Part shown: piece by piece, positions 458 to 2,492 of the stretch | Position numbering within the stretch: position 1 is the first letter of the stretch | Layout: every line of letters starts with the position of its first letter | Assembly: GCF_013265555.1 (NCBI RefSeq) | Contig: NZ_CP041345.1 | Span: forward strand, 2,278,581 to 2,342,580 | Direction of reading: 5' to 3' | Source of the DNA: Tenuifilum thalassicum | GTDB taxonomy: Bacteria > Bacteroidota > Bacteroidia > Bacteroidales > Tenuifilaceae | Length of the DNA: 64,000 nucleotides | The notes under the pieces: generated by a model | Told to the model about the DNA's origin: nothing | Databases searched by the model: none | What the model saw: the letters and a program-made list of their open reading frames with translations, nothing else | Program-made: the position numbers and the translations under genes

Positions 458-883
458 ATGGATAAAATAAGCATACAAACCGATTGGTTAGAGGGAATGG
501 CATTTGAAACCGAGGTAAATGGCCATAAAATAATAATTGATGCCGACGAGAAAGTTGGTGGTACCAATCGTGGTCCACGCCCCAAACCTTTAATGCTTGT
601 TGCACTTGCTGGTTGTACCGGGATGGATGTAATATCTATTCTCAAAAAAATGCGCGAAGATGTTAAGAACTTTAGAGTTACCGTTGAAGCCCTTCAAACC
701 GATGAGCATCCAAAGCATTATGTTGAGATGAAAGTGATATACGAATTCTGGGGAAAAAACCTAGACCCAGAAAAAGTAAACAAAGCCGTTAAGCTTAGCG
801 ATGAAAGGTATTGTGGTGTTAGTGCCGCATATAAGAAAGGGATGAAGCTGACTCACGAAGTGGTTATTCACAACGAAGAATAA
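458..883 (+). CDS. OsmC family protein
   Basis: The 142-residue product matches the OsmC/Ohr fold family of thiol peroxidases. The two family cysteines are visible: C53 in AGCTGMD at the start of the central helix and C119 in DERYCGV. OsmC proteins reduce organic hydroperoxides in the cytoplasm; many Bacteroidetes members have no defined substrate. The frame stays open upstream to a TTG at 407, but that stretch overlaps a promoter-like TTAACTTGC near 394-402, so the ATG at 458 (MDKISIQ) is preferred. The next gene starts 1 nt after the stop, indicating an operon with the DUF1858 protein. Confidence 0.85.
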   Translation: MDKISIQTDWLEGMAFETEVNGHKIIIDADEKVGGTNRGPRPKPLMLVALAGCTGMDVISILKKMREDVKNFRVTVEALQTDEHPKHYVEMKVIYEFWGKNLDPEKVNKAVKLSDERYCGVSAAYKKGMKLTHEVVIHNEE

Positions 884-884
884 A

Positions 885-1082
885 ATGAAAATAACACCTG
901 AAATCAGCATTGAAGAGCTAATTGAGGAAATGCCCGAATCGGTTAAGTTCTTGCGCGACAAAGGGATTATTTGTGTGATTTGCGGGGAACCCGTGTGGGG
1001 CACTCTTTATGACCTGGCATCGGAAAAGGGATTCACCGATGCAGAAATTGATGAAATTGTAAACGAGCTTAACTCACTTTAA
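885..1082 (+). CDS. DUF1858 domain protein
   Basis: A 65-residue protein that is essentially one DUF1858 domain: N-terminal ITPEISIEELIEEMPES, then FLRDKGIICVICGEPVWGTL with a CxxC pair (C30, C33), then a helical tail. DUF1858 domains often accompany hybrid-cluster, Fe-S or redox proteins, and the CxxC could bind metal or act as a redox thiol; the biochemical role is not known. It begins 1 nt after the osmC-like gene, so the two are co-translated, suggesting a shared oxidative-stress role (inference). Confidence 0.8.
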   Translation: MKITPEISIEELIEEMPESVKFLRDKGIICVICGEPVWGTLYDLASEKGFTDAEIDEIVNELNSL

Positions 1083-1200
1083 GACAAATGAACTAACTCT
1101 AAATTTTAACTACAAAAGCAGTTAGTGCATTAATCTTAGCAATTTCGTTTGATTTTTAAAAAATATTTCAGATATTGCAAAAGGAATTGACAGAACAACG

Positions 1201-1278
1201 ATGACACAACTTTTAAACACCAATCCTAACAATAATTTCAACAATAACTTGTTGAAATGGGAAGGTTTTGGTGTTTAG
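1201..1278 (+). CDS. Asparagine-rich leader peptide 1 (asnA attenuator)
   Basis: A 25-codon ORF, 8 of whose codons are Asn: positions 6, 8, 10-12 and 14-16. It ends at a TAG 25 nt before a perfect terminator stem and lies upstream of asparagine synthetase. Such a run of the cognate amino acid is the hallmark of ribosome-mediated attenuation. Stalling on Asn codons would leave 1259-1269 free to pair with 1304-1314 and block the terminator. An AAGGAA sequence lies about 14 nt before the ATG. Not a functional protein; no database support could be checked. Confidence 0.8.
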   Translation: MTQLLNTNPNNNFNNNLLKWEGFGV

Positions 1279-1303
1279 TCAAAGAAACTATTAAAAATAA
1301 ATC

Positions 1304-1337
1304 AAAGCCTTCCTCAACACAGGAAGGCTTTTTTTAT
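1304..1337 (+). terminator. Attenuator terminator 1 upstream of asnA
   Basis: The arms AAAGCCTTCCT (1304-1314) and AGGAAGGCTTT (1321-1331) are a perfect 11-bp stem followed by a T run. The 5' arm can alternatively pair with GGGAAGGTTTT at 1259-1269 inside leader ORF 1 (11 pairs including two G-U), forming a mutually exclusive antiterminator. Confidence 0.85.
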
Positions 1338-1347
1338 TGATACAATT

Positions 1348-1464
1348 ATGAAAAGGCACTTGAACAATAATAACAATAATCGTCCTCCACCCGTCGGGAA
1401 TGGAATGTGTGCATATTGTTCAAAACCCTTCCCGACAAACGGCGAAGGGATTTTTTTTTACTAA
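1348..1464 (+). CDS. Asparagine-rich leader peptide 2 (asnA attenuator)
   Basis: The ATG at 1348 opens a 38-codon frame with six consecutive Asn codons (positions 6-11, bases 1363-1380), followed by Arg and three Pro codons. It lies between terminator 1 and asnA. The base run GTCGGGAA at 1393-1400, just after the Pro codons, can pair with TTCCCGAC at 1429-1436 and so disrupt terminator 2. The stop (1462-1464) falls beyond terminator 2, unlike classic leaders. The Asn block makes a regulatory role likely; the exact functional 3' end is uncertain. Confidence 0.7.
   Translation: MKRHLNNNNNNRPPPVGNGMCAYCSKPFPTNGEGIFFY
1426..1459 (+). terminator. Attenuator terminator 2 upstream of asnA
   Basis: The stem CCCTTC-CCG / CGG-C-GAAGGG (one bulge) carries a 5-nt loop and is followed by ATTTTTTTTT. 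It ends 25 nt before the asnA start, and its 5' arm overlaps the predicted antiterminator partner 1429-1436. Confidence 0.8.
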
Positions 1465-1484: not shown

Positions 1485-2492
1485 ATGAAACTACAAAACT
1501 TTGAAACAATTACAGGAAGCATAAACAGAACGATTGAAACGGAAAAGGCAATAACATTAATTAAGGATACTTTTCCAAAACTACTGGCAGAAAAGCTAAA
1601 CCTTCTTAGGGTAACAGCACCGCTAATAGTTGAATCGCAAACAGGAATTAACGACGATTTAAATGGAGTAGAAAAACCTGTAACCTTCACCTCCCAAGCC
1701 ATTGGTAAACATATAGAAATTGTTCAATCGTTAGCCAAATGGAAACGTTTGGCCCTACATAAATTAAAAATGCAACCAGGCCAGGGCATTTATACTGATA
1801 TGAACGCCCTTAGACCCGATGAAATTCCAGATGCTACACACTCTATATATGTTGACCAATGGGACTGGGAAAAATTTATAGATAGTTCGGATAGAACTGT
1901 CGAGTATTTTCGTAAAACAGTTAATTTAATTTACGCTGCCATTAAAGAAATGGAAATGATAGTTGCAACACAAACCAGAGCAATTACACCAGAGCTGCCA
2001 CAAACCATTCATTTCATTCATACGGCAGAACTAGAAGAGATGTACCCTAGCCTCACGGCAAAAGAACGGGAGCAAAGAATCTGCCAACAATATGGTGCTG
2101 TATGCATTGAGGGAATAGGCTATCCCCTTTCAGACGGTAAGCCAACAGATGGAAGAGCACCCGACTATGATGATTGGTCTACCCTACGACCCGATGGTTA
2201 CAGGGGCTTAAATGGCGACATAATAGTTTGGCACAAACCTTTAGGCATTGCTCTGGAACTCTCATCGATGGGGATTAGAGTGAGCAGAGAGTCATTAATG
2301 ACCCAGCTAAAATTGCAGAATCTTGAAAGCAGAATCAAATACCCATACCATAGCATGCTTATTAACAACATTCTTCCTCAAACAATTGGAGGTGGTATTG
2401 GACAATCGCGACTCTGCATGTACCTGCTGCGAAAGGTGCACATTGCTCAGGTACAAGAATCGGTATGGCCCGATGAAATAGAAACCAATTAG
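1485..2492 (+). CDS. asnA: Aspartate-ammonia ligase (asparagine synthetase A)
   Basis: AsnA makes asparagine from aspartate, ammonia and ATP in the cytoplasm. The 335-residue product matches the length of the E. coli enzyme. It shows the family blocks HSLAKWKR-like (QSLAKWKRLAL), ALRPDE, YVDQWDWE, RAPDYDDWST, GLNGDI.VW, ELSSMGIRV and the near C-terminal TIGGGIGQSR, typical of a class II aminoacyl-tRNA-synthetase-like fold. The frame extends upstream to a GTG at 1407, but that would run through terminator 2. The ATG at 1485 (MKLQNFETI) gives the normal N terminus. It sits behind two Asn-rich leader peptides, so asparagine-tRNA supply probably controls its transcription. A strong terminator follows. 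Confidence 0.95.
   Translation: MKLQNFETITGSINRTIETEKAITLIKDTFPKLLAEKLNLLRVTAPLIVESQTGINDDLNGVEKPVTFTSQAIGKHIEIVQSLAKWKRLALHKLKMQPGQGIYTDMNALRPDEIPDATHSIYVDQWDWEKFIDSSDRTVEYFRKTVNLIYAAIKEMEMIVATQTRAITPELPQTIHFIHTAELEEMYPSLTAKEREQRICQQYGAVCIEGIGYPLSDGKPTDGRAPDYDDWSTLRPDGYRGLNGDIIVWHKPLGIALELSSMGIRVSRESLMTQLKLQNLESRIKYPYHSMLINNILPQTIGGGIGQSRLCMYLLRKVHIAQVQESVWPDEIETN

What the first reader, a model, noticed from the sequence alone, without database searches (positions are those of the whole stretch)
1201..1337. Asparagine-codon attenuator upstream of asnA
A 25-codon ORF with 8 Asn codons is followed by a perfect 11-bp terminator. Its 5' arm (1304-1314) can instead pair over 11 positions with 1259-1269 inside the leader. 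A third pairing, AAACACCAA (1215-1223) with TTGGTGTTT (1268-1276), competes with the antiterminator. This is a complete 1:2 / 2:3 / 3:4 ribosome-mediated attenuator, responding to charged Asn-tRNA, for an ammonia-dependent asparagine synthetase. Classic examples are trp, his and leu; Asn-specific leaders are not among those I know well.
Basis: partly seen in the sequence, partly recalled or inferred. Interest (0 to 1): 0.85.

Follow-up and report, generated by a model that had tools for sequence, protein, structure and literature searches.

The report
Double asparagine attenuator before asnA
Upstream of its only recognisable asparagine-making gene, this Bacteroidales bacterium carries two consecutive RNA 'checkpoints' that appear to let the gene be copied only when ribosomes run short of asparagine; the second seems to carry a built-in proline brake, and the arrangement is conserved across related bacteria.

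Summary
The reported attenuator is real, but it is only the first half of the element. Leader A (1201-1278, 8 Asn codons), its terminator (1304-1331 plus T run), a 14-bp antiterminator and a 1:2 stem are all present. A second, missed attenuator follows directly: leader B (1348-1464, MKRHL-NNNNNN-RPPP...), antiterminator strand about 1394-1403, terminator about 1424-1450 with nine T. Then comes asnA (1485-2492). There is no room for a promoter between the two, so they should act in series on one Asn signal.

Relatives support this. Tandem Asn leaders precede asnA in about ten lineages of Bacteroidota, and others have one. Each terminator arm pairs better with its own leader than with swapped ones (51 of 52, p=5e-10). 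All 21 second leaders that I compared have Pro within four codons of the Asn run, against 1 of 21 first leaders.

RPPP is a published strong ribosome pauser. It, or a stop after Pro, sits usually at the fourth codon after the run, where a paused ribosome would cover the antiterminator strand. I propose a proline brake that lowers leak.

No expression data exist, so all function is inferred. I found no published Asn-responsive attenuator or same-signal tandem; most subscription papers were not searchable.

The parts
1148..1179 (+). Probable Bacteroidota-type promoter (TTTG near -33; ATATTGCA near -7)
   Evidence: Inspection; a TTGC/TTCGC/TTTG box about 15-27 nt before leader A recurs in relatives. 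Not tested statistically.
1201..1278 (+). Leader peptide A, MTQLLNTNPNNNFNNNLLKWEGFGV, 8 Asn codons
   Evidence: ORF; Asn-rich leader at this place in relatives
1214..1223 (+). Strand 1 of attenuator A (includes Asn codons); pairs with 1268-1277
   Evidence: similar 1:2 hairpin in nearly all A-type leaders
1259..1272 (+). Strand 2 of attenuator A; antiterminator with 1301-1314
   Evidence: 14-bp duplex -20.5 kcal/mol; covaries
1304..1337 (+). Intrinsic terminator A (3:4), perfect 11-bp stem plus T run
1348..1464 (+). Leader peptide B, MKRHLNNNNNNRPPPVGNGMCAYCSKPFPTNGEGIFFY; Asn codons 1363-1380; its stop lies beyond terminator B
   Evidence: conserved second leader
1381..1392 (+). Arg-Pro-Pro-Pro codons between Asn run and strand 2: proposed ribosome brake
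   Evidence: Pro motif in 21 of 21 second leaders, 1 of 21 first leaders; RPPP a strong pauser in E. coli (PMC8129111)
1394..1403 (+). Strand 2 of attenuator B; antiterminator with about 1426-1436
   Evidence: covaries in 26 of 26 distinct leaders
1424..1460 (+). Intrinsic terminator B (3:4), CCCTTCCCG...CGGCGAAGGG plus nine T
   Evidence: equivalent terminator in most relatives with leader B
1485..2492 (+). asnA, aspartate-ammonia ligase (regulated gene)
   Evidence: TIGR00669 and PF03590
2511..2541 (+). Terminator after asnA; asnA appears monocistronic

Best explanation
The asnA leader is two ribosome-mediated transcription attenuators in series, both reading charged Asn-tRNA. Transcription starts just before leader A. 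When Asn-tRNA is scarce, the ribosome stalls at Asn codons and covers strand 1 and the Asn run. Strand 2 stays free, pairs with the 5' arm of the terminator, and polymerase reads on. When Asn-tRNA is plentiful, the ribosome reaches the end of leader A, covers strand 2, and terminator A forms. Polymerases that pass are tested again at leader B. There the Asn run is followed directly by Arg-Pro-Pro-Pro. A ribosome that has cleared the Asn codons slows on the prolines with its leading edge over strand 2, so terminator B forms; in relatives a stop codon after one or two prolines sits at about the same register. Two checkpoints in series should multiply leak reduction and steepen the response. Shown: sequence, predicted structures, conservation, covariation, geometry. 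Inferred: all dynamics, the brake, the series logic.
For: Complete A and B attenuator anatomy. Asn-rich leaders at the same place upstream of asnA in many Bacteroidota, tandem in several families. Among 100 Bacteroidales asnA upstream regions, Asn-rich small ORFs occur in 19 on the gene strand against 3 on the other. Tandem terminators with T runs. Own 2:3 pairing beats swapped arms in 51 of 52 leaders, Wilcoxon p=5e-10, mean z -3.5 against shuffles. Run-plus-PPP pattern in 393 genomes of the order: three hits, all before asnA, no control hit. Strand 2 of leader B starts a median of 12 nt after the last Asn codon and ends at 24; with my assumed 12-nt reach past the A site, a ribosome stalled on the last Asn leaves it free and one paused at the Pro/stop codon covers most of it. 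Pro motif 21/21 against 1/21, p=8e-11. Pro codons vary at the third base and the Pro segment does not covary with strand 2, p=0.80. RPPP pauses as strongly as a stop in E. coli (PMC8129111). No asnB over the cut-off in this genome.
Against: No RNA, ribosome-profiling or reporter data for this organism. In the window, leader B runs through its own terminator, so without a pause the ribosome would melt it: the model needs the brake. 15 of 19 B leaders reach p<0.05 for 2:3 against shuffles, weaker than A (19 of 20). No terminator was found by the scan for L004 leader B. Many asnA genes in the same order have no Asn leader. Footprint distances are general knowledge, not measured here, and the brake inference leans on E. 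coli.
Confidence: 0.87

Rival explanations
1. Only RNA matters after the Asn run in leader B: the C-rich codons are a spacer or a weak protector hairpin with the G-rich strand 2, and the prolines are a by-product. (A rival to the brake part only.)
For: The C-rich segment can pair weakly with strand 2 in many leaders, e.g. CCACCC...GGG..TGG in MFE folds; mean duplex -5.7 kcal/mol.
Against: No covariation between the Pro segment and strand 2 (own equals swap, p=0.80) while 2:3 covaries in 26 of 26. Third bases of the Pro codons are mostly not C (A 34, C 18, T 14, G 5). The preceding Arg uses CGT, CGA, CGC and AGA.
Confidence: 0.3
2. One attenuator does the work; the other is a decaying duplicate or backup with little effect.
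For: Many relatives have only leader A, a few only leader B; the tandem state changes repeatedly on the AsnA tree.
Against: In this family both leaders keep Asn runs and covarying pairings, and the two-leader layout is found at AsnA identities down to about 46-60%.
Confidence: 0.12
3. A riboswitch or T-box-like RNA binds asparagine or uncharged tRNA-Asn; the ORFs are incidental.
For: Alternative pairings upstream of an amino-acid gene would also fit a ligand-binding RNA.
Against: No Rfam family reaches its gathering score. Conservation is of in-frame Asn codons with free choice of AAC/AAT, and spacing fits ribosome footprints.
Confidence: 0.03
4. The small peptides act in trans, as Asn-rich effectors.
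For: Leader peptide peTrpL has trans roles in Sinorhizobium (PMC7298713 abstract).
Against: Outside the Asn runs and the Pro motif the peptides diverge in sequence and length; terminators and antiterminators would be unexplained.
Confidence: 0.02

Closest known systems
trp/his/leu-type ribosome-mediated attenuators
   Same: Short ORF with runs of the codon of the regulated amino acid, 1:2, 2:3 and 3:4 alternative pairings, intrinsic terminator before a biosynthetic gene
   Different: Asparagine is the sensed amino acid, in Bacteroidota, with two attenuators in series and a Pro motif after the run in the second
Salmonella mgtCBR tandem attenuators mgtM/mgtP (PMC3641672)
   Same: Two small ORFs in tandem in one leader; consecutive Pro codons in the second
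   Different: mgtM and mgtP read different signals (ATP; charged Pro-tRNA). Here both read Asn, and Pro is proposed as a brake, not a sensor
E. coli pyrBI (pyrL) attenuator and the polyproline-pyrL reporter (PMC5021804)
   Same: Ribosome position relative to an intrinsic terminator decides termination; a PPPPPP stall upstream of the hairpin increases termination in cells lacking EF-P
   Different: pyrL is controlled by coupling without 2:3 antitermination; the polyproline there was engineered
Engineered HisL reporters with XPPP (PMC8129111)
   Same: RPPP in a leader peptide pauses as strongly as a stop codon
   Different: There the prolines replace the sensing codons and raise read-through; here they follow the sensing codons and should lower it

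Membership tests
[quoted passage not shown]
   8 Asn codons in A, 6 consecutive in B, before asnA; conserved
Ribosome-mediated transcription attenuator | Intrinsic terminator between leader and gene | tested here: met
   Predicted terminators A and B; termination itself not measured
Ribosome-mediated transcription attenuator | Mutually exclusive antiterminator using the 5' arm of the terminator, supported by covariation | tested here: met
Ribosome-mediated transcription attenuator | Protector pairing 1:2 competing with 2:3 | tested here: inconclusive
   Met for A; for B only a weak local hairpin without covariation
Ribosome-mediated transcription attenuator | Stall at regulatory codons frees strand 2; ribosome beyond them covers it | tested here: met
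   Geometry only, computed for B and read off coordinates for A; footprint values assumed
Ribosome-mediated transcription attenuator | Read-through rises when the cognate amino acid is scarce | not testable with these tools
   No expression data
Described RNA family (Rfam 15), T-box included | Match at the gathering score | tested here: not met
   Window stretch: best sub-threshold hits Phe_leader 27.7 of 55 bits and PyrR 29.3 of 54; seven relatives: none
mgtCBR-type tandem attenuator with different signals | The two leaders sense different signals | tested here: not met
   Both leaders carry Asn runs

The most novel reading that the evidence does not exclude
Leader B is a two-step nascent-peptide device: an Asn-codon sensor followed at fixed register by a polyproline brake (or Pro-stop) that parks the ribosome on the antiterminator strand. 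It works in series with a classical Asn attenuator to give a squared, very low-leak response. Termination at the second checkpoint might also depend on EF-P activity.
Probability: 0.5. Interest if true: 0.78.

Novelty: new variant of a known kind. Interest (0 to 1): 0.64.

Why it matters
It would extend ribosome-mediated attenuation to asparagine and to Bacteroidota, where I found only brief mentions of leader-peptide attenuation. It would give a conserved natural case of two attenuators in series on one signal, useful for testing theory on leak and sensitivity. And it would be a natural use of a polyproline pause as a timing element inside a regulatory leader.

Tried and rejected
Rfam matches below threshold (Phe_leader, PyrR and others) were treated as chance. 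Pro sensing as in mgtP was rejected for leader B: a stall at Pro would cover strand 2 and favour termination. A general 'run plus PP' design was tested for His leaders in 148 related genomes: one hit, not pursued. A looser Asn-run-plus-PP pattern in 395 genomes of the phylum gave, besides the window, one hit inside what looks like the coding start of an unrelated secreted-protein gene. The sigma-70 scan found no promoter near the leaders, as expected for Bacteroidota. Literature searches for Asn leaders or same-signal tandem attenuators found none; Naville and Gautheret 2010 does not mention Bacteroidetes in its main text. Subscription journals are mostly missing, so a published description may exist.

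Full report
Observation. The antiterminator, 14 bp, is slightly longer than stated, and the stretch folds 7.5 sd better than shuffles. The downstream gene is asnA by two curated libraries. No asnB passes the family cut-off in this genome, so AsnA appears to be the only asparagine synthetase.

What was missed. Thirteen bases after the T run of the first terminator starts a second ORF, 1348-1464, MKRHLNNNNNNRPPPVGNGMCAYCSKPFPTNGEGIFFY. Inside it lies a second alternative pair: strand 2 at about 1394-1403 with 1426-1436 (-16 to -18 kcal/mol), and the terminator CCCTTCCCG...CGGCGAAGGG plus nine T. The run of six Asn codons occurs only here in the 3.2-Mb genome, apart from an AAT microsatellite. 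The short gap leaves no room for a separate promoter for leader B, whereas a promoter-like box precedes leader A in relatives. So B should be reached only by polymerases that passed A (inference).

Conservation. AsnA loci came from related genomes and a named genome collection and were scanned for Asn-rich small ORFs. Tandem leaders occur in the window's family (L001-L013, L019) and in G496 (L095), L033, L047/L071, L049 (Seonamhaeicola), L060, L067, L080, L178, L184 and L217. Single A-type leaders occur in many others, including Myroides and family f85; single B-type leaders in a few (L015, L157, L186, L238, L251). In 100 further Bacteroidales upstream regions, 19 have an Asn-rich ORF on the gene strand and 3 on the opposite strand, so the leader is common but far from universal. 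On a quick AsnA tree the leader types cluster and the tandem state changes several times.

Covariation. For 52 leaders the terminator 5' arm was paired with its own leader, with shuffled leaders and with arms of other loci. Own pairing was stronger than the mean of swapped pairings in 51 of 52 (Wilcoxon p=5e-10; mean z -3.5 against dinucleotide shuffles), for A, single and B leaders alike. The rows are related, so the p-value is nominal; closely related arms make the swap test conservative. A-type leaders nearly all fold into a long 1:2 hairpin in which Asn codons pair with the strand-2 side.

Two designs. First leaders end with LLK.EG, WK.WEG or IRAGRL-like tails that encode strand 2. Second leaders have one Asn run followed by RPPP, SPPP, PPP, KSPP, GSPP-stop, SSP-stop or FSP-stop. 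All 21 second leaders compared have Pro in the four codons after the run, against 1 of 21 first leaders. They were collected by Asn content, except the one from G496, which came from a pattern that asked for Pro. One further second leader, L006, also has RPPP but was left out of that count. In 28 B-type leaders the slow codon (third Pro, or the codon after the last Pro, mostly a stop) is usually the fourth after the run. In the 27 of these with a terminator found, strand 2 spans a median of 12 to 24 nt after the run. Assuming a leading edge 12 nt past the first base of the A-site codon, a ribosome held on the last Asn reaches to +9 and leaves strand 2 free; one held at the Pro step reaches to +21 and covers most of it. 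The Pro segment does not covary with strand 2 (p=0.80), whereas strand 2 and the terminator arm do in 26 of 26.

Meaning of the prolines. In E. coli, RPPP in a leader peptide pauses ribosomes about as strongly as a stop codon, while NPPP and TPPP are weak (PMC8129111). Polyproline upstream of an intrinsic terminator increases termination when EF-P is missing (PMC5021804). In the window, leader B has no stop before its terminator, so an unpaused ribosome would run over the hairpin. A brake at RPPP would avoid this and keep strand 2 covered. This is inference, and an RNA-only role for the C-rich codons is not excluded.

Comparison. The element works like the trp/his/leu attenuators and meets most of their sequence-testable features; a protector pairing is clear only for A, and response to asparagine is untested. 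The nearest described tandem case is mgtCBR, whose two leaders sense different signals (PMC3641672). Theory links basal read-through to ribosome release at the leader stop codon (PMC1183508), which gives a reason for a brake and for two checkpoints. I found no published Asn-responsive attenuator; a flavobacterial transcriptome paper mentions leader-peptide attenuation at amino-acid operons, and its main text names no Asn case (PMC9723704).

Noticed in passing
L135, L137, L147, L148, L085, L088, about 100-150 nt before asnA: Family f85 loci have an A-type Asn leader and terminator and then a further hairpin, e.g. CTCCC..GGGAGG..GGCCGCTTATTGCC; no Rfam match in the five f85 loci searched; function unknown.
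   Followed up: partly
L035, L055, L077 upstream of asnA: Aminicenantes asnA genes have a different Asn leader (TTSNNNRAVPTAR / VSNNNNNRVVSAAQ) with a GC-rich hairpin directly after the Asn run.
   Followed up: partly
L132-L154 (family f85): Two AsnA clades in one family: one with Asn leaders (one member without a detected leader), the other without, so the leader follows the gene lineage.
   Followed up: no
window 458-1082: Upstream neighbours: an OsmC-like protein and a small protein weakly matching the hybrid-cluster-protein-associated redox disulfide domain (25 bits, below the cut-off of 45).
   Followed up: no
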